A stretch of DNA of 64,000 nucleotides. Origin: an uncultured Elusimicrobia bacterium (lineage in GTDB: Bacteria; Elusimicrobiota; Elusimicrobia; Elusimicrobiales; Elusimicrobiaceae). Positions 1,156 through 10,193 of this stretch are shown here, in pieces (within the stretch, counting starts at the first letter, position 1; the number at the start of each line of letters is the position of its first letter). The translations under genes were made by a program, and so were the position numbers. A model generated the notes under the pieces. The model had not been told where the DNA came from. It saw only the letters and a program-made list of their open reading frames with translations, and did no database searches. The DNA is taken from positions 1 through 64,000 of the forward strand of contig CAMECJ010000007.1 in assembly GCA_945913025.1 (NCBI GenBank), in the 5' to 3' direction.

Positions 1156-1335
1156 ATGAAAACACAGGGAACGCTGTTTAATAAAAGAGGTCAAACCGCG
1201 GTAGAATATATTGTAACGGCGGCAGGTCTTTTTACGGCGATTATTTCCTTTTATGTGCTCTATTCGCACCTGGTTCCGCAGCAGTTTGACCAAGGCGCCA
1301 AAGTGATTTTGTCGGAATATAACACCGGAAGTTAA
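1156..1335 (+). CDS. Small Flp-type pilin-like protein (59 aa)
   Basis: ATG 1156 to TAA 1335. The N-terminus reads KRGQTAVEYIVTAAG, the class III (Flp/TadE) prepilin signal: a basic leader, Gly12 as the residue before cleavage, Gln13 as +1, and Glu17-Tyr18 at +5/+6, then a single hydrophobic helix to about residue 37. The short C-terminal part is polar. It starts three bases after the PorV-like gene and precedes the larger Flp pilin, so it is probably a minor pilin or pseudopilin of the same system. The assignment rests on the signal, length and position. Confidence 0.7.
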   Translation: MKTQGTLFNKRGQTAVEYIVTAAGLFTAIISFYVLYSHLVPQQFDQGAKVILSEYNTGS

Positions 1336-1361: not shown

Positions 1362-1592
1362 ATGAAGTTTATCGTTGCTTTGCAAAACAAAATGGACGGC
1401 TTGAGAGCCAAAGCTCTTGACTGCCTGAAGAAAAAAGAAGGCCAGAACACGATCGAATACGTATTGATGCTCGTAGTGGTCGTGGGTGTGGCGGGTTTGG
1501 CCGGCATGCTTATCAAAAAGTTTATGCCTGAACTTTTTGAAAACGTCAAAGGTAAAATCTTGGGCGGTATGAATTCTTCTGCTGAATATTAA
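1362..1592 (+). CDS. flp: Flp-family type IVb major pilin candidate
   Basis: 76 residues. The leader is unusually long for Flp (27 residues) and ends KKEG; predicted cleavage is Gly27/Gln28, with Glu32-Tyr33 at +5/+6. A hydrophobic helix (VLMLVVVVGVAGLAGMLI) follows, then a short tail. A strong AGGAGG at 1349-1354 gives the best ribosome site among the neighbouring pilin genes, as expected for an abundant subunit. It would be processed by a TadV/CpaA prepilin peptidase, which is not in this window, and assembled by the TadA/TadB/TadC machinery encoded downstream. Confidence 0.85.
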   Translation: MKFIVALQNKMDGLRAKALDCLKKKEGQNTIEYVLMLVVVVGVAGLAGMLIKKFMPELFENVKGKILGGMNSSAEY

Positions 1593-1597
1593 TTCGT

Positions 1598-2083
1598 ATG
1601 AAGTTTTTTAGGAAGCGTGGCGGGCAGGTAACCGCAGAACTGATGTTGATTTTGCCGGTATTTATGCTGATGATTTTTTTCGTGCTTGAATACGGCAACA
1701 TCGCCTATCACACGCTTATTGCCAACCACGCTTCCTATGAATTTGCGCGCATCGCCTCGCTGGTGTCCGTTAAAAAGCCCAGCGGCCGGCCGGACCGGAC
1801 GGTAATGACGCAAAAGATTAACCAAGCCAAGCAGAAAGTGTTTGGCAGCAAGGCGGGCGGTATAGGCGTTACCGTAAAGGTGGAAAACACCGGTACGGAT
1901 CCGATGTATAAAAAACACCGCCACGAAGACGTAATCGTTACGGTTACGTATCCCGTCCGTTTGGCGTTTCCCGGTACCAGTTTTATTTTGGCCAGCGAAC
2001 CCCGTCGGGAAGGTATACGCAAAATTAAAGCCGTTGCGCGTATGCCGATTGAAAAACTGTATCTGAGTTCGGATACCAAATAG
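1598..2083 (+). CDS. TadE-like pseudopilin
   Basis: 161 residues. The N-terminus has KRGGQVTAELMLILPVFM: predicted cleavage Gly9/Gln10, Glu14 at +5, then one membrane helix to about residue 30. The remaining 130 residues form a periplasmic domain with several beta strands, as in TadE. It begins five bases after the Flp pilin stop and is clearly in the same operon. TadE/TadF proteins are minor pseudopilins needed for Flp pilus biogenesis. Confidence 0.85.
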   Translation: MKFFRKRGGQVTAELMLILPVFMLMIFFVLEYGNIAYHTLIANHASYEFARIASLVSVKKPSGRPDRTVMTQKINQAKQKVFGSKAGGIGVTVKVENTGTDPMYKKHRHEDVIVTVTYPVRLAFPGTSFILASEPRREGIRKIKAVARMPIEKLYLSSDTK

Positions 2084-2122: not shown

Positions 2123-2878
2123 ATGAAAAAAGGAATTTTCCTGCCGTTTGTGGTGGCACTTTTAGCGGCCATCGTATATGCGATGATTGTCAGCAGCGCG
2201 GAGAAAAAGCTGAATGCTTCCAAAAATATCCAGCAAGTGTTTGTACCCGTGCGTGACATTAAAGAACGCGAAGTGATTAAACGCGATATTCTGAAAACCG
2301 TTCCGGTTCCGGCGGCATATTTGCAGAAAGACGCGTTTACGTATTCTACCGCCGCCGACTTTAAAGCCATCGAAAATGCAGTGGCGCGTATCCAAATTCC
2401 CAAAGGCAATCAGATTTCCAAGTATGCCATAACCTCGCTGTCTCCCGAGGCAGGGTTGTCCAGCAAAATTCCGGTGCAAATGAGAGGTTACGTTATCAGT
2501 GTTCCCCTGACTACTGCCAGTATGATTAAACCCGATGACAACGTCGATGTGCTTTTGACCTTTGAAGCGATGATGAAAAACGGTTCGCGCCAAAAAGTGG
2601 CTTTGACGCTGTTGCAGAACGTGAAAGTGCTGGGGGTGGGGTCTGACTTGGGCCAAGGGCTTGATGCCCGTTCGGCCGCTGCAATGAAAAATAAAGAAGA
2701 GGAAGCCGCCGCATATTCGGATAACTCGGTGCTTTCTCTTTCGCTGTCTCCGCGCGATGCACAATATTTGGCGCTTGCGCAGGCCGAGGGTGACATTTCC
2801 GTCATCTTGCGTTCTCACGGCGACGTAACTAACTATTTGATGGAAATTGCTACATTCGATAAATTATTTAACAATTAA
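2123..2878 (+). CDS. cpaB: Flp pilus assembly protein CpaB/RcpC
   Basis: 251 residues. An N-terminal signal anchor covers about residues 4-24. An SAF-type domain follows (VFVPVRDIKEREVIKRDIL, about 40-75), then the RcpC/CpaB region around GYVISVPLTTASMIKPDDNV and a beta-rich C-terminus. The length matches the family. CpaB is a periplasmic, inner-membrane-anchored protein thought to connect the pilus channel with the secretin and possibly bind peptidoglycan. A ribosome site AAGGAG lies before ATG 2123, and the secretin gene follows after 13 bases. Confidence 0.9.
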   Translation: MKKGIFLPFVVALLAAIVYAMIVSSAEKKLNASKNIQQVFVPVRDIKEREVIKRDILKTVPVPAAYLQKDAFTYSTAADFKAIENAVARIQIPKGNQISKYAITSLSPEAGLSSKIPVQMRGYVISVPLTTASMIKPDDNVDVLLTFEAMMKNGSRQKVALTLLQNVKVLGVGSDLGQGLDARSAAAMKNKEEEAAAYSDNSVLSLSLSPRDAQYLALAQAEGDISVILRSHGDVTNYLMEIATFDKLFNN

Positions 2879-2891
2879 CACGGAATAAATT

Positions 2892-3638
2892 ATGACCAAT
2901 ACAAAATTCGTTACGAAATTGTCACTTGCGGTATTACTGCTCGGGGTGTTAGCCCCGGTGGAACTGCACGCCAAAAAAACGCGATTGGTTGCCGTCAGCG
3001 CCGATGTGGTGGAAATCAGCGGTACAATGCAAAGCGTCAAAGGGTTTTCTTGGAACCAGCTGTTTGATTTTGAAGAAGCCACTATCCCGGGTATTTTGTC
3101 CTTGGGCGAGTTTGAACGCAAAACAGCGGTTACCACGCGTTTGCGCTTGATGGAAACAGAAGGCCGCGCACAGGTCTTGTCCAACCCTAAAATAGTAACG
3201 TCTTCCGGCAACAGTGCCAAAATTACGGTTGGCGGTAAAATCCCAATACCGATTGTAAATAACCAGGGCGTTGGTTCCCAGTTGGAAGAATATGGTATTT
3301 TGCTTAACGTGCTTCCGACGATTATTCCGGAACGCAATAATATTATTGATTTACAAGTCCAGCTGTCCGTATCCACGGTGGACTATTCCAGAACGGTGGT
3401 GATTGGTACGGCTACCGCGCCGTCTTTTACCAACCGCGATGTGGAAACCCACGTGGAAATTAATAGCGGCGAAACTTTGGTTATCGGCGGGCTAAAAAGC
3501 AGCGCGCGTAACGTATCCGAGGACCGCGTGCCGTTCTTGGGTCGTTTGCCGCTTATCGGTCTGTTGTTTAAGAGCAAAGACGTTACCGAAGAGCAGCGCT
3601 CGCTCTTCTTGTTCATTACGGTCGAAATCGTAGAGTAA
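2892..3638 (+). CDS. Short secretin (CpaC/RcpA-type) domain protein
   Basis: 248 residues with a signal peptide ending near LHA at residue 27. The secretin domain fills most of the protein: LSNPKIVTSSGNSAKITVGG, then VEINSGETLVIGGL, and the closing VPFLGRLPLIGLLF block, ending ...LFLFITVEIVE. Typical CpaC/RcpA proteins are roughly 400-500 residues with N-terminal BON/N1-type domains. Here almost nothing lies between the signal peptide and the secretin domain, so this is a minimal secretin. It should form the outer-membrane pore of the pilus system. It lies between cpaB and the ATPase gene, the usual order. Confidence 0.85.
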   Translation: MTNTKFVTKLSLAVLLLGVLAPVELHAKKTRLVAVSADVVEISGTMQSVKGFSWNQLFDFEEATIPGILSLGEFERKTAVTTRLRLMETEGRAQVLSNPKIVTSSGNSAKITVGGKIPIPIVNNQGVGSQLEEYGILLNVLPTIIPERNNIIDLQVQLSVSTVDYSRTVVIGTATAPSFTNRDVETHVEINSGETLVIGGLKSSARNVSEDRVPFLGRLPLIGLLFKSKDVTEEQRSLFLFITVEIVE

Positions 3639-3645
3639 ACATGTT

Positions 3646-6168
3646 ATGGCTGAAGAGTTAGAACCTCAGAAATCCGACGCAAAAATTATCGCGTTTGCCG
3701 GCCCCAAAGAAGGCGCCGGACGCACAACGCTGGTGCTGAACTTGGCATTAGGGTGGGCGGGTATTCAAAAACGTCCGGTACTCATCGTGCCGCTTGATCC
3801 GCTTGCGCGTCAGGAGCACAGCTTTTATTTGGATATCGCCAAACCTGTCAGTGTGGCGGATTTGTTAAAAGTGTTAGGTAATACCTCCATAGCTGTTGTT
3901 GGCGGTCTTTTGCGCGGGAAGATTTCTATGTCCCAGTGGGGAGTCGGTTTGTTACCTCTGGGTAATACGCGCGCGCAGGCGGCTTCTATCAGCCCGAAAA
4001 TTTTAATTCCCATTTTGTCCCGTTTGGCACAGACGTTTGATATTTTTTTGGATGTAGATTCTTCTTTCCCGATGCAGGCGTTTGCGTTTGATATCGCTGA
4101 CAAGATGTTTTGGGTATCCAACGCCACCCGCACACATATTAATTCTACCGTACAGCTGTTTAACGATTATAAAGAACAACGCTATCCGATGGACCGCGTC
4201 AGCGTGATTTGTAACGGATACGATATACCCGGTTCCATTCCTTACGAAGAAATGGAACGATTCTATTCCCAGCTGGGGCGCGAAGTGGACGTATTTCTTC
4301 CATGGGATGCCGATGTTATGGCGACGTCCAACCGCCGCGAGGTGGAAATTATTACCAACCCGCAGTCCGAATGGGTAAAAGGGCTCCGCCTTGTTCTGGC
4401 CAAAATCCGCGATTTGAAACCGGCTCCTAAAGACTGGATGGCTTCGGTATCGGATGAAGAATTTTCTCAAGCGTCTAAAGAAATTTGGTCGCCCGTATTG
4501 TTTGATGACGGCCAAGGGGCTGCTTCCGGCCAGAATCATATTATCGCTGAGGGGGAAGAAGCAAGCAACGCGAAGTTGTCTTTTTGGGACGATTTAAAAC
4601 AAAAAGTGCACAAAGAGGTCGTGCATACGCTGGAAATTGAGCATATTGTAATCAGCGAAGAAAGTTCCGCCAGCGAACAGACCCGCAAACGCGTGGCCGC
4701 CATTGTGGACGACATCTTGCAAAAACAGCCTAACCTTCAGTTCTCGCGTGACCAGCGCACGCGTTTTACGTCGGAACTGTTGGACGAAATTTTAGGTTTG
4801 GGTCCGCTGGAAGTGCTGATGCGCGATCCGGCTGTTACCGAAATTATGGTTAACGCCTTTGATAAGATTTTCATCGAACAAAAAGGTAAGTTGACCTTAA
4901 CCAAATACAAATTTAGAAATAATGAACAAGTGGTGCAGGTCATTAAACGTATTGTGGCGCCGCTGGGCCGCCGTATTGATGAATCTGTTCCTCTTGTGGA
5001 CGCGCGTTTGAAAGACGGCTCCCGCGTAAACGCCATTATTGCGCCTTTGGCCGTATCGGGGCCGACGCTTACTATCCGCCGCTTCTCATCCAAGCCGTTC
5101 GGTCCGGAAGATTATTACCGCTTTGGCACAATCAGTCCGGAATGTATGGAGTTTGTAAAAAAATGTGTGAAAATCCGCAAAAACATCATCGTTTGCGGCG
5201 GTACGGGGACAGGTAAAACCACATTCTTAAACGCAATTTCCGGTTATATTTCCAACGATGAACGTATTATTACCGTGGAAGATACCGCGGAGTTGCGTCT
5301 CCAACAGCCGCACTGGGTGTCTTTGGAAAGCCGTCCGCCGAACGTGGAAGGAAAAGGTGCCGTTACCATTCAGGATTTGGTAAAAAACTGCTTGCGTATG
5401 CGTCCTGACCGCATTGTGGTCGGGGAGTGCCGCGGCGGCGAAGCGCTGGATATGTTACAGGCAATGAACACCGGTCACGAAGGTTCGCTGACCACCATTC
5501 ACGCCAACACTCCGCGCGACGGATTATCCCGCTTGGAAGCGATGTGTATGCAGACGGGCGCCGATTTGCCGATTTTTGCTATTCGCGAAATGATTTCTTC
5601 CGCCGTCAATATGATTGTGCAACTTTCCCGTTTTTCAGACGGCTCCAGAAAGGTAACTTATATTACCGAAATGCACGGACAGAAAGACGGCGAAATCCAG
5701 TCTACCGACTTGTTCCGCTATGTGCAGACGGGTGTAGACGAAAATGGTAAAGTGCAGGGGTTGTTCGCCCCTACAGGGAATTTACCTACGTTTTATGAAG
5801 AATTTGCGGCTAAGGGTCAGCCGGTGGAAGAAGAGGTTTTCCATAAAAATGCCGTTCCGCTGGACGAAAATGGCGAGCCGGATCGCGAAGCTATCAGAAA
5901 ATTAGTGGCTTCTATGCAGGGTAAAGCAGCGCAAAGTGTACCCGTACGGGATGTGCCGACGGCTCCCGCCGTTGCGGCTAAACAGCCTGCCGCCCCGAGC
6001 GCTCCGGTTTCCGGAGTATCGCCCGAGGCGCCGTCTGTTCCGGCAAAAACGGCGGAGGTGCAAAACACGCCCGCAGTGCCGGCTGCACCGCGCCCGCCGG
6101 TTCCGCAGGCTCCGGCTGCGCCTCAAATACCGCAACCTCCGCGGGGAAATGTTCCGCCGCAGGCATAA
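3646..6168 (+). CDS. TadZ/CpaE-like plus TadA/CpaF fusion ATPase
   Basis: 840 residues combining two genes that are usually separate. Residues 10-260 are a MinD/ParA-like domain (TadZ/CpaE, pilus localisation) with a deviant P-loop [10 protein letters not shown] at 19-28; the usual Lys of the GKT triplet is Arg26, so nucleotide hydrolysis may be impaired. Residues about 320-680 are the TadA/CpaF secretion ATPase: Walker [10 protein letters not shown] at 518-526, Walker B DRIVVGE, and the His-box [13 protein letters not shown]. The last ~100 residues are Pro/Ala-rich and probably disordered. The TadA half powers Flp pilus assembly at the cytoplasmic face of the inner membrane. No stop or frame change separates the halves. 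Confidence 0.9.
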
Positions 6169-6203
6169 CGGGTTGCCGTAAATTGAACGGAAGGTTTGTA
6201 GAT

Positions 6204-7829
6204 ATGACGAAAAAAATGTATGTTTGGATGGGAGTTTTGCTGTGTGTTGCGCCGCTGTTTGCACCGGCGGATGCACCGGCCCGTTCGCTTAGCGCCAAAG
6301 ACCGCACCAAAATCAAGTGTTCTATGGAGAAAATGCGTATTTTGGCGGAATTTTTTGACGTCAAAAAATCCAATGCCGAAAAAATATACGAACTGCCCGC
6401 TGAATGCAGCGGCGGTAAGCCGCGTAAAATCACAATGCCGGAGTGGTTTGGCAAAGAACTTCCGCGTATGGAAAATACCAAAGTGGTGTACGTTCCCGGC
6501 GAGGGTACCTACAGCGAAGTGGATTTGTGGCGGCAGGCGTTTTCAAACGTATATTTCTTTTTGGAACGGGCCGATAAGTCGTTGGACCCGAATATTCCGT
6601 TGGTGCTTGACCAACTTTCCCGCGGGTTCGTGTCTGACCGTATTCGCTTAGTGGCCACCTTGGACCGTTTGAACAAAGATTTGCTGCGCAATAACAAGCT
6701 TCTTATTATGAAAGACAGTATGGACGGGCGCGCGCGTTCTATGCTCTCTACGTTTGAGCTTATTAATAACGAATTTTTCAGCACGATAGAATCTTTTTCC
6801 AGTCCTGTTTCCTATCGGGAGGACAAATACCGTAAATCCGTGATGGCAGTAGTTATTTTGTCTAACCACTTGTTTTCCCAGTTTATGGGGCCTGTCATTC
6901 CGGCCGCACCGCCGGATCCGAAAATTTTTGCCACTACCCGCGCGGACCGCGCGTACAGCTTGTTTATGCTGTTGTTGGGATCGGCTTTGGCGGGATTTTC
7001 CGTCTATCTTCTGTTGGACAATCGCCGTGAAAATATTTTACGCCTCATGGCGGAATATAAAGAGAAAAGCCTTGTTTGGGCGGAAGATTTCAACCGCCAG
7101 TTTGTTACCATTGATATTAAATACATTGTATTTGGTACGGTCGGTATTTTTGCTGTGTTGGGGCTTTTGCTGGGGCTGATGGTAGGCGGCTTTGGCGGCG
7201 TGTTTGTCTTTTTACTTGTCTTGTTTGCAGGTGGTGTAATTAGTATCCGTATGCCGGCCGCCGTGTTGGACGCGCTGAAAAAAAGCCGCGGCAAACGTGT
7301 GAATGCGCAATTGATGGATTCGCTGATTTTGCTTTCCAACTCGCTGCGTTCGGGTATGGACATTGTGCAGGGATTTGAACTGGTGTCCAAAGATATGCTT
7401 CCGCCTATTGCTGACGAATTTGGGTTGGTGGTTAAAAACTATCAGCTGGGTACTCCGTTCGAGAAAGCGCTTGACGGCCTTACGGACCGCGTAGACAGCC
7501 GTATGCTTGCTTATATTATTAAGGCGATTATCATTCAGCGTCAGGTGGGTGGTAATTTAACGGTCATTTTCTCGCGTTTGGTGGAAAATATCCGCGAAGA
7601 AAGCAAGTTAGAAGAAAAATTGCAGGCTATGACAGCACAGCAAAAAATTCAGTCTATTGTCGTCAGTATTATGCCGTTTGTAATGATGCTCGTTATGTTT
7701 ATTTTCAACCCTTCCCAAATGATCGGTTTCTATACAAGCCCGGTGGGAATTTTCGTATTCTTGTTCTGCATCATTTGGATTGGCATCGGTATGAAAGTGC
7801 TTAAGAAAATGGGAGAGGTGCGGGTATAA
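6204..7829 (+). CDS. tadB: TadB-like inner-membrane platform protein with long periplasmic N-domain
   Basis: ATG 6204 is preferred over an upstream TTG at 6183 because GGAAGG at 6189-6194 is correctly spaced and the protein then opens with a signal peptide (MTKKMYVWMGVLLCVAPLFA). Residues ~25-245 are a predicted periplasmic region of unknown fold. Membrane helices lie at ~250-272 and ~305-349. The T2SSF domain (DSLILLSNSLRSGMDIVQGF, about 370-480) and two closing helices follow. Normal TadB is about 300 residues, so the 220-residue exported N-domain is extra. The stop codon overlaps the start of tadC. TadB and TadC together form the platform that extracts pilins under TadA power. Confidence 0.85.
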   Translation: MTKKMYVWMGVLLCVAPLFAPADAPARSLSAKDRTKIKCSMEKMRILAEFFDVKKSNAEKIYELPAECSGGKPRKITMPEWFGKELPRMENTKVVYVPGEGTYSEVDLWRQAFSNVYFFLERADKSLDPNIPLVLDQLSRGFVSDRIRLVATLDRLNKDLLRNNKLLIMKDSMDGRARSMLSTFELINNEFFSTIESFSSPVSYREDKYRKSVMAVVILSNHLFSQFMGPVIPAAPPDPKIFATTRADRAYSLFMLLLGSALAGFSVYLLLDNRRENILRLMAEYKEKSLVWAEDFNRQFVTIDIKYIVFGTVGIFAVLGLLLGLMVGGFGGVFVFLLVLFAGGVISIRMPAAVLDALKKSRGKRVNAQLMDSLILLSNSLRSGMDIVQGFELVSKDMLPPIADEFGLVVKNYQLGTPFEKALDGLTDRVDSRMLAYIIKAIIIQRQVGGNLTVIFSRLVENIREESKLEEKLQAMTAQQKIQSIVVSIMPFVMMLVMFIFNPSQMIGFYTSPVGIFVFLFCIIWIGIGMKVLKKMGEVRV

Positions 7830-8719
7830 TGAATAGCTTGGCTTTGACGTTAGGGCTTAAAGTGCTGTTGTCTATGGGTATGTTCGCGGTATTTTTGACC
7901 GTGTTCGGCCTTTTGGCTCCTAAAGAGAAAAAAGATAATTTGATGGATGTGGACGTCCGCCGTTTTAAGTCCACTTCCAGTTTCTCGCGCTTAAAACCGG
8001 AAGAAAAATTTTTGGACCGTGTAGCCGTTTTCTGTCTGCATACCTTTCACTTGGAGTCCAGTTTGGAAGAAATGCATCTGCTTTTGGGCAGTCCGGAAAA
8101 ACCGCAGCCCGTCGATATTTTATATACTAAAATTATCGCTTCGATGGCGATTCCGGCGGCCATGATGCTGCTGTTCCAATCCATTTGGCCGGTAGTGCTT
8201 GTTCCGCTTTGTTTTTATGTGCCGGATGTGCTGCTTAAAAGCAAAATCCAGCAGCGTCAGGCGGAAATTTTGGGAAATTTCTCCACCACGGTGGACTTGG
8301 CGGCTTTGATTATTGAATCCGGTTTGGATTATTTAACCGCTTTTGAAAGAATTATCAAAATTGCGAAAGAGAAAACGATTTTGGAAGAAGAATTGGAAAA
8401 AACGATTAACGAAATTAAGTTGGGGTACTCCCGCCGTGAAGCGTTAGAGCGGTTTTCCGCCCGTACGGGGGTACAGGAAGTGCGGTCTTTGGTTGGGTTG
8501 ATTATTCAGTCGGATGAGTTAGGTACCAGCTTGGTGGATTTGCTGCGCAATTTCTCGTCGGATTTGCGTTCGCGCCGTTTGTCCCGTGCGGAAAAATTGG
8601 CGGCGCAGGCGTCCACAAAGATGTTGTTTCCGCTTTTTATGTTTATCTTCCCAACAATTTTTATTTTAATTTTAGCGCCGATGGTGATGGGCCTTGTCAA
8701 CGGCGGTATGGGATTTTAG
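7829..8719 (+). CDS. tadC: TadC-like inner-membrane platform protein
   Basis: 296 residues. One N-terminal helix, a central pair of helices (~105-135), a T2SSF domain around FSTTVDLAALIIESGLDYLT, and a C-terminal hairpin of helices (LFPLFMFIFPTIFILILAPM). Length and helix layout match TadC. ATG 7829 overlaps the stop of tadB by one base, so the two products are translationally coupled, as expected for obligate partners. Confidence 0.88.
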   Translation: MNSLALTLGLKVLLSMGMFAVFLTVFGLLAPKEKKDNLMDVDVRRFKSTSSFSRLKPEEKFLDRVAVFCLHTFHLESSLEEMHLLLGSPEKPQPVDILYTKIIASMAIPAAMMLLFQSIWPVVLVPLCFYVPDVLLKSKIQQRQAEILGNFSTTVDLAALIIESGLDYLTAFERIIKIAKEKTILEEELEKTINEIKLGYSRREALERFSARTGVQEVRSLVGLIIQSDELGTSLVDLLRNFSSDLRSRRLSRAEKLAAQASTKMLFPLFMFIFPTIFILILAPMVMGLVNGGMGF

Positions 8720-8729
8720 AGGATATTGT

Positions 8730-10193
8730 ATGAAAAAATATTATATTTGGGCGTTAGTTTTATTGTTGGTTCCGTCCTTTTTGGGAGCGGCTGCGTTTCG
8801 CGGCGATGTTCCCGTCCGCCAGCACGGTAAAGAAGAAGGAATGCTGCTGGACTTGAGTAAAATTTCTATGGGTACTTTAAACGACGTGGAAGAAAAGAAA
8901 CAGTATTTGTCCACCGTCCAGTTGGAAAAACAACGTATCCAGAACTATACGCTGCGTATGGTGTATGAGAACGCTTACATCCTCTATAAACACGGCGACT
9001 ACCAGCGTGCGCAGGAAATGGCACAAACCATTCTCAGTATCGATCCCAATTTTAAGCAGGCCCAAACGCTGGCCAAGCAAGCCCAGCACATGGGAACATA
9101 CGGAACGATTTCCGAGTCGCAAGTCATCGAAGCCAAATTTCAGGAAACTATCCGCTTGTATGACAGCGGACGCTTGGTGGAAGCAAATGATAAATTAAAT
9201 GAAATTTTAACCATTCAGCCCGCCAACTCCAAAGCGGCCGCGTGGAAACGCAAAATTGATTATGATATTGCCAAAGAATACGCCCGCCGCGGAGACGTGG
9301 CCTACGAAAAAGGTGATTATCAGGCCGCGCTTGATGCGTGGTACAATTCCCTTTTGATGCGCAAGGACGATTCTAAACTGGTTTCCAAAATTGCGGACAC
9401 GGAAAACAAACTGCGTAAACAGCAAGTAGAAGAATCGATGAAACAGGCCTTGGAATTTTATAATCAAGGCCAATATGTGGAATCCTACGCTGTGTTTGAG
9501 CGCATTACGAAAATCCAACCCGGTGATCCGCGCGTACAGAAATATATGTCCCAGTTAAAAAACGAAATTGCCGCAGGGTATTATAATGCGGGGAATAAAT
9601 CGTATAACGCGAGCCGCTTTGACCAAGCTATTTCTTACTGGACAAATGCTAAGAAATGGGGGGCGGATTCTGCTTCGATGGACGGACTGATTAAGCGCGC
9701 CCGCGATGCTAAGGAAAACCGTCTGCGTATACAGAAAGAACAGGCTGTCCAAGCCGCACAACAAGCCAAACAACAGGCGGAGGAAGCCGCTAAAAAAGCT
9801 GAAGAAGTCCGGAACGAAAGCGATACGGAAGACGAAGACCCGCTGGAAACGGTTACTATGGAAGAAACTAACATCCCGGGTTTTAATGGCGCTCCTTTAA
9901 TCCCTGGTGGGAAAGGATCCGCTGCTGGCGGTACGTCCGCTGCCGGCGGTACGTCCGCTTCCGGCAACCCGCTCGACCCGAACGAAACGCTGCCTACTTT
10001 GGGCGGTACCACCAGCCGCGTGTCGGCGGAAGCCAGCGCCGCTTCCCGCGCAAAATATATTGAGGGGTTGGACGCTTTTAACCAAGATGATTACGAACGG
10101 GCCCGCGCTGCGTGGATAGTGGCCAAACAGCTTGACCCGGGTAACAGTGACGCCGATTTGGGGCTTCGCAAAGTGGAAGAGTTGATGAAATAA
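8730..10193 (+). CDS. Exported TPR protein (TadD-like position)
   Basis: 487 residues from ATG 8730, chosen because AGAGG at 8717-8722 precedes it and a signal peptide follows (MKKYYIWALVLLLVPSFLGA). An upstream in-frame TTG lies inside tadC. TPR-type helix pairs occupy about residues 70-320. An Ala/Gln/Glu-rich coiled coil (KEQAVQAAQQAKQQAEEAAK) lies near 330-360, then a low-complexity Gly/Ala/Ser linker with a repeated GGTSA unit, and a final TPR unit at the C-terminus. TadD, a TPR lipoprotein, holds this place in many Tad loci. This protein is larger and lacks a lipobox, so the TadD match is by role only. Confidence 0.75.
   Translation: MKKYYIWALVLLLVPSFLGAAAFRGDVPVRQHGKEEGMLLDLSKISMGTLNDVEEKKQYLSTVQLEKQRIQNYTLRMVYENAYILYKHGDYQRAQEMAQTILSIDPNFKQAQTLAKQAQHMGTYGTISESQVIEAKFQETIRLYDSGRLVEANDKLNEILTIQPANSKAAAWKRKIDYDIAKEYARRGDVAYEKGDYQAALDAWYNSLLMRKDDSKLVSKIADTENKLRKQQVEESMKQALEFYNQGQYVESYAVFERITKIQPGDPRVQKYMSQLKNEIAAGYYNAGNKSYNASRFDQAISYWTNAKKWGADSASMDGLIKRARDAKENRLRIQKEQAVQAAQQAKQQAEEAAKKAEEVRNESDTEDEDPLETVTMEETNIPGFNGAPLIPGGKGSAAGGTSAAGGTSASGNPLDPNETLPTLGGTTSRVSAEASAASRAKYIEGLDAFNQDDYERARAAWIVAKQLDPGNSDADLGLRKVEELMK

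What the first reader, a model, noticed from the sequence alone, without database searches (positions are those of the whole stretch)
3646..6168. TadZ-TadA fusion with Lys-to-Arg change in the TadZ P-loop
The localisation ATPase and the assembly ATPase are one continuous 840-residue chain. The MinD-like half keeps [10 protein letters not shown], where the GKT Lys is Arg, while the TadA half has an intact Walker A. Fusion would fix 1:1 stoichiometry (hexameric TadZ on hexameric TadA), and the P-loop change suggests a structural rather than enzymatic N-half.
Basis: partly seen in the sequence, partly recalled or inferred. Interest (0 to 1): 0.6.

Follow-up and report, generated by a model that had tools for sequence, protein, structure and literature searches.

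The report
TadZ–TadA fused pilus motor protein
In a little-studied group of bacteria, the protein that places the Tad pilus machine and the motor that drives it are made as one chain; the fusion is old and widespread in the group, while the odd P-loop residue first noticed is an ordinary local variation.

Summary
The 840-aa ORF is real. It joins a TadZ/CpaE-type MinD-fold domain (about residues 13-260) to a complete TadA/CpaF motor inside a Tad pilus locus. The TadZ P-loop reads [10 protein letters not shown] (Arg, codon CGC) and the TadA Walker A is intact.

The fusion is no artefact. It occurs throughout the phylum (Elusimicrobiota; one relative's contig matches Endomicrobium proavitum's published chromosome length exactly). 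It also occurs in 10 of 80 TadA loci sampled elsewhere, mostly Bdellovibrionota.

The Arg is neither fusion-specific nor diagnostic. In the window's class 143 of 152 fused sequences keep Lys; Arg arose at least three times in the family; and 21 of 42 stand-alone TadZs lack the Lys, 6 of them with Arg.

The stronger signal lies elsewhere: in the phylum's other classes the whole TadZ P-loop has decayed (Lys 2 of 30) while the domain is kept and TadA's Lys stays invariant (183 of 183). Fused TadZ also lacks the receiver-sized N-domain of most stand-alone TadZs, and AlphaFold predicts a flexible linker of about 50 residues.

Most likely, covalent tethering replaces receiver-domain ring building and part of ATP-driven TadZ recruitment. 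1:1 stoichiometry follows if one chain is made; "hexameric TadZ" is unsupported.

The parts
1156..1335 (+). small Flp-type pilin candidate 1 (59 aa)
   Evidence: ORF with KRGQTAVEYIV...; weak Flp_Fap hit at 1180-1257, E 0.038, below cut-off
1362..1592 (+). small Flp-type pilin candidate 2 (76 aa)
   Evidence: ORF with KKEGQNTIEYVLMLVVVVG...; reading as pilin is inference
1598..2083 (+). TadE-like minor pilin
   Evidence: PF07811 E 9.7e-11
2123..2878 (+). RcpC/CpaB
   Evidence: PF16976 E 8e-18
2892..3638 (+). short secretin (248 aa)
   Evidence: PF00263 E 9.4e-42
3646..6168 (+). fused TadZ-TadA, 840 aa
   Evidence: ORF; fused in relatives
3682..4428 (+). TadZ/CpaE-type ParA/MinD domain, residues about 13-261, no receiver domain in front
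   Evidence: hhalign class N-halves vs stand-alone TadZ 99.9; PDB 3ea0 by sequence and fold; AlphaFold
3700..3729 (+). TadZ P-loop [10 protein letters not shown]; Arg26 codon CGC at 3721-3723
4417..4566 (+). predicted flexible linker, residues about 258-307
   Evidence: AlphaFold pLDDT under 50 at 258-262, 264-268, 272-277, 282-307
4567..5850 (+). TadA/CpaF motor (NTD1 to C-terminal domain)
   Evidence: CpaF 8rkd/9e24 E about 5e-115; T2SSE; fold match to CpaF
5197..5223 (+). TadA Walker [10 protein letters not shown]
6183..7829 (+). TadB with about 300-aa N-terminal extension
   Evidence: PF00482 at residues 383-506 only
7829..8719 (+). TadC
   Evidence: PF00482 E 2.6e-15
8694..10193 (+). repeat-type protein taken as TadD-like
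   Evidence: ORF, homologues in the same place in L095 and L096; TPR reading is by eye

Best explanation
The gene encodes a two-domain motor subunit of a complete Tad pilus machine. Shown by sequence and prediction: a TadZ/CpaE MinD-fold domain without the receiver domain, a flexible linker of about 50 residues, then a full TadA/CpaF ATPase, with TadZ attached where CpaF carries its disordered NTD0. Inferred: TadA forms a hexamer, so each motor carries six tethered TadZ domains, probably as three neighbour dimers or as free recruiters. TadA hexamerisation replaces the receiver-mediated TadZ ring, and tethering raises local TadZ concentration so far that ATP-driven TadZ dimerisation and recruitment become partly dispensable. 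That would explain why the P-loop may drift (Arg, Ser, Ala in the window's class) and was lost altogether in the other classes, while TadA's P-loop never changes. The window's Arg is one tolerated variant, not a switch in function.
For: Single ORF. In 225 loci from the phylum, 174 distinct TadA genes: 161 fused, 8 without TadZ, 4 cut by edges, 1 masked (fetching favoured strong matches). TadA Walker Lys 183 of 183 against TadZ Lys 145 of 183. Class of the window: Lys 143 of 152, glycine scaffold 152 of 152; other classes: Lys 2 of 30, scaffold 5 of 30. Eroded N-halves are still TadZ by profile and keep other positions, e.g. Asp at residue 49 in 29 of 30. The TadZ half evolves faster than the TadA half at all depths. 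The fused TadZ P-loop lies at frame residue 18-64 in 10 of 10 outside fusions, against 99-227 in 38 of 42 stand-alone TadZ frames. AlphaFold: two confident domains, linker under 50 pLDDT, pTM 0.61. CpaF NTD0 is disordered; its deletion leaves phage infection at wild-type level but is reported to reduce retraction (PMC11300603, passages). CpaE sits as dimers around CpaF, with receiver domains likely joining the dimers (PMC13170226, passages). No second TadZ seen in the window's genome: the other MinD-like hits with a KGG P-loop look like Soj and Mrp.
Against: No experiment. Stand-alone TadZs also lose the Walker Lys in 21 of 42, so Lys loss is not a consequence of fusion. Loss of the glycine scaffold needs only one change on the tree, so the 'eroded' set is close to one event. 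The relative position of the two domains is not predicted. No clear amphipathic membrane helix was found in the linker.
Confidence: 0.6

Rival explanations
1. The TadZ half is still a nucleotide-switched ATPase in this genus; Arg26 keeps enough phosphate contact, and the change is neutral or tunes affinity.
For: Signature Lys, glycines and Thr are intact; glycine scaffold 152 of 152 in the class. Lys is the rule in the genus, with window and L012 the only Arg among L001-L042. Denise 2019 states that TadZ has an atypical Walker A, binds ATP and has low ATPase activity (PMC6668835, passages).
Against: Arg, Ser and Ala all occur within the class, which suits relaxed constraint better than tuned catalysis.
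Confidence: 0.3
2. The fusion is a neutral gene joining; TadZ and TadA associate anyway, and fusion changes neither stoichiometry nor control.
For: In Caulobacter the unfused proteins already form one ring complex.
Against: Fusion goes with absence of the receiver domain and has been kept across the phylum; the Caulobacter model has two CpaE per CpaF, which a fusion cannot reproduce.
Confidence: 0.2
3. Two products are made from the ORF by internal initiation or proteolysis.
For: GTG and TTG codons exist in the linker.
Against: Only one ATG (codon 265) between the domains and no evident ribosome-binding site.
Confidence: 0.05
4. Assembly artefact.
For: None found.
Against: Same fusion in dozens of assemblies, in single-contig genomes G108 and G218, the latter matching the PacBio chromosome of Endomicrobium proavitum in length.
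Confidence: 0.01

Closest known systems
TadZ/CpaE (ParA/MinD superfamily, Tad pilus localisation ATPase)
   Same: Fold, deviant Walker A with drifting Walker Lys, place in a Tad locus
   Different: No receiver domain in front; fused to TadA; P-loop wholly lost in the phylum's other classes
TadA/CpaF motor ATPase
   Same: About 43% identical to CpaF in the fold search, with the same NTD1-NTD2-CTD order; motor motifs present
   Different: TadZ in place of the disordered NTD0; TIGR03819 score below its cut-off (329.8 against 373.15)
FHA-domain TadA (KilF of the Myxococcus Kil system)
   Same: TadA with an extra N-terminal domain; short secretin in the same locus (PMC8460266, passages)
   Different: The extra domain is FHA, not TadZ
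FlaH-FlaI of the archaellum / Epd-type archaeal pili
   Same: Secondary ATPase gene next to the major motor ATPase (PMC6668835, passages)
   Different: Separate genes; FlaH's mechanism on FlaI is recalled, not looked up
NCBIfam NF047398 AAA_KGGVGR (P-loops with Arg)
   Same: Arg at the Walker Lys position
   Different: Window domain scores 16.6 bits against a cut-off of 90

Membership tests
TadZ/CpaE | ParA/MinD fold related to TadZ | tested here: met
   hhalign 99.9 for class N-halves vs 42 stand-alone TadZs; 3ea0 rmsd 2.9, TM(target) 0.79
TadZ/CpaE | encoded in a Tad locus next to TadA, TadB, TadC, secretin | tested here: met
   for the window; for neighbours
TadZ/CpaE | deviant Walker A of the KGGxGK[ST] type | tested here: not met
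   signature Lys, Gly, Thr kept, Walker Lys is Arg; but the same site varies in 21 of 42 stand-alone TadZs, so this feature is not strict
TadZ/CpaE | N-terminal atypical receiver domain | tested here: not met
   MinD fold begins at residue 13; 38 of 42 stand-alone TadZ frames have the P-loop at residue 99-227, 4 also lack the front domain
TadZ/CpaE | places the pilus machine in the cell | not testable with these tools
   -
TadA/CpaF | T2SSE fold with Walker A, acidic and His boxes | tested here: met
   Walker Lys 183 of 183; G, E, R, E of GECRxxE 183 of 183; H and N of HxN 183 of 183
TadA/CpaF | NCBIfam TIGR03819 cut-off | tested here: not met
   329.8 bits against 373.15
TadA/CpaF | C2-symmetric hexamer | not testable with these tools
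   known for CpaF
NF047398 AAA_KGGVGR | score over the curated cut-off | tested here: not met
   16.6 against 90 bits

The most novel reading that the evidence does not exclude
Elusimicrobiota built TadZ permanently into the Tad motor before their classes parted, without a receiver domain, and in all classes but the window's turned it from an ATP-switched localiser into a nucleotide-free docking domain carried by the TadA hexamer: a Tad machine whose positioning factor no longer cycles and whose TadZ:TadA ratio is fixed at 6:6 instead of 12:6.
Probability: 0.4. Interest if true: 0.55.

Novelty: new variant of a known kind. Interest (0 to 1): 0.4.

Why it matters
How TadZ/CpaE acts on the motor, and in what ratio, is open; the Caulobacter model (six CpaE dimers on a CpaF hexamer) rests on fitting predicted models into subtomogram-averaged density. 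A natural one-chain version fixes the ratio and ties TadZ to the position of CpaF's NTD0, a segment reported to affect retraction. The gradient inside one phylum, from canonical P-loop through Arg/Ser/Ala to no P-loop, in a chain whose second P-loop never changes, is a ready set of natural variants for asking whether TadZ needs ATP. The isolate Endomicrobium proavitum carries an eroded form and, if G108 is Elusimicrobium minutum (size recalled), that isolate carries an Arg form.

Tried and rejected
Viral contigs: no relative. Hydrophobic moment of the linker: no clear membrane helix. The first motor tree had a wrong row: L227 was cut at its TadZ P-loop instead of the TadA one; corrected and rebuilt. 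One script failed on a pattern. Two further tests of clade unity did not finish, so I claim nothing on whether all TadZ-TadA fusions share one origin.

Considered and rejected: assembly artefact; two separate genes; the Arg as mark of a structural domain; an independent fusion in this genus.

Rows dropped before counts: one search left out frames under 600 aa and duplicates (184 kept); the counts use 183, without L083, which is masked by N. The 600-aa filter favours fused genes, so the fused share is taken, not. In one search one row (L071, family f6) is counted apart from the class (no Walker Lys, no scaffold). The 23 'FHA' rows of the tree were labelled by long N-extension without a TadZ hit and by eye, not by a domain search. 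In 'other classes' are 30 rows of related lineages, not 30 events.

Full report
What is there. The window holds a Tad pilus locus at its left end. Two small pilin-like ORFs (one with a sub-threshold Flp_Fap hit) are followed by TadE, RcpC/CpaB, a short secretin, the fused protein, TadB and TadC (Pfam), and a repeat-type protein read as TadD-like. A prepilin peptidase lies elsewhere in the genome. The fused ORF is 840 aa. Residues 13-261 are a ParA/MinD-type domain, residues about 301-735 are TadA/CpaF. The P-loop of the first is [10 protein letters not shown], that of the second GGTGTGKTT.

Identity of the halves. The TadA half matches CpaF in the PDB with E about 5e-115, aligned to CpaF residues 85-483, and with 43% identity by fold search. 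CpaF's residues 1-79 (NTD0) are described as disordered; their removal leaves phage infection at wild-type level, and loss of NTD0 is reported to reduce retraction (PMC11300603, passages). TadZ therefore sits where NTD0 would be. The TadZ half matches 3ea0, a ParA-family ATPase of Chlorobium tepidum (sequence; fold: rmsd 2.9, TM(target) 0.79). Profiles of fused N-halves of the class match stand-alone TadZs at 99.9. AlphaFold (58 rows, mean pLDDT 85.7, pTM 0.61) gives two confident domains and a low-confidence linker at about 258-307. The relative orientation is not determined.

Is the fusion real and how wide is it? In the nearest 60 genomes and the window's own, 61 of 61 have a match at E 1e-3, many full-length in one frame (some matches are other ATPases). 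At E 1e-40, 175 of 196 genomes of the class and 237 of 294 of the phylum match; the rest had none at that threshold. Among 225 loci I fetched there are 174 distinct TadA genes: 161 fused, 8 without TadZ, 4 cut by an edge, 1 masked. Fetching favoured strong matches, so 161 of 174 is not an unbiased rate, and the HMM used was built from these sequences. The external test is the hhalign comparison.

Outside the phylum. Ten are TadZ-TadA fusions by HMM. Seven are of Bdellovibrionota or cluster with them (one of these, L269, is titled only 'bacterium'; another is the complete chromosome of Bdellovibrio sp. qaytius, CP025734.1). The other three are one Deltaproteobacteria/Myxococcota MAG, one WOR-3 MAG and one Eremiobacterota MAG. 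The architecture is thus not private to the phylum. On a TadA tree the window's class forms a clade (99), the other classes with the four unfused copies another (94), and eight outside fusions a third (96), with weak branches between. One clade for all Elusimicrobiota is not rejected (p-AU 0.713). The four unfused TadAs of the phylum group with the fused ones of the other classes, so they most likely lost TadZ.

The P-loop. At the Walker Lys position the 183 aligned fused sequences have K 145, R 14, Q 10, S 7, A 2, V 2, and T, C, L once each, while TadA's Walker Lys is K in 183 of 183. In the window's class: K 143, R 4, S 3, A 2 of 152, and the glycine scaffold is intact in 152 of 152. In the other classes: K 2 of 30, scaffold 5 of 30. 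On the representative tree the Lys state needs 5 changes, the scaffold state 1. Within the window's family Arg needs 3 changes, with codons CGC, AGA, AGG and CGC against AAA/AAG. CGC differs from AAA and AAG at all three bases, so the Arg is neither a sequencing slip nor brand-new. Among 42 stand-alone TadZ frames in the 80 outside loci: K 21, R 6, T 6, C 5, S 2, V 1, A 1, scaffold 37 of 42. What does stand out is the total loss of the P-loop in the other classes with the domain retained: the Endomicrobium-type N-halves still match stand-alone TadZ (probability 95.8; pairwise E-value, hence optimistic), and across the other classes several positions are kept, none of them in the P-loop. Against this, the direct match of the Endomicrobium-type profile to the class profile was poor (9.4); the link runs through the stand-alone and intermediate sets.

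Mechanism. Shown: one chain, predicted flexible linker, no receiver domain. From the literature: CpaE was modelled as six dimers around the CpaF hexamer, with receiver domains likely linking dimers (PMC13170226, passages); TadZ binds ATP and has low ATPase activity (PMC6668835, passages). Inferred: in the fusion the TadA hexamer is the scaffold, so the receiver domain is not needed, TadZ is always recruited, and the ratio is 6:6. ATP-dependent dimerisation then matters less, which permits drift and loss. Because stand-alone TadZs also lose the Lys, fusion is at most one of the permitting causes.

Print. Searches for TadZ+TadA+fusion, CpaE+CpaF+fused, Elusimicrobi+Tad pil, Elusimicrobi+pilus assembly, Bdellovibrio+CpaF+Tad, TadZ+domain architecture, joint terms such as TadZ-TadA (50 papers, 20 listed) and Elusimicrobiota+type IV pil listed no title or abstract start describing this fusion. 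I opened only some of these papers, and most subscription journals are not held. [quoted passage not shown] A 2024 comparison of Endomicrobia says only that pilins are the sole appendages encoded (PMC11257099, passages). The two primary TadZ papers of 2012 were not held.

Verdict. Observation confirmed. New variant of a known kind, moderate interest.

Noticed in passing
window 2892-3638: The secretin is only 248 aa, little more than the secretin domain; the Myxococcus Kil secretin is also described as short and lacking N0.
   Followed up: no
window 6183-7829: TadB is 548 aa, its T2SSF domain only at residues 383-506; relatives in the family have 535 and 545 aa (L095, L096), whereas TadB in other classes is about 280-299 aa. 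The extra N-terminal part (possible signal peptide and periplasmic domain) had no Pfam hit.
   Followed up: partly
L078 3776-5564; L079 4607-6520: In other classes a second, unfused TadA stands directly after a short secretin, without a TadZ found nearby, besides a fused copy elsewhere in the genome.
   Followed up: partly
window 5881-6165: The fused protein ends in a Pro/Ala-rich tail of about 100 residues, longer than in most relatives (open frames mostly 735-790 aa).
   Followed up: no
window 3790-3792 (residue 49): Residue 49 is Pro or His in most of the window's class, but Asp in 29 of 30 sequences of the other classes, where the P-loop is lost: Asp and P-loop seem to trade places.
   Followed up: no
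L226-L305: About 23 of 80 outside TadAs carry a different long N-extension without TadZ match; several look like FHA domains, labelled by eye.
   Followed up: no
L289, L291, L299: Selenomonadales/Veillonellaceae loci carry two TadZ-like genes in tandem, one without the front domain.
   Followed up: no
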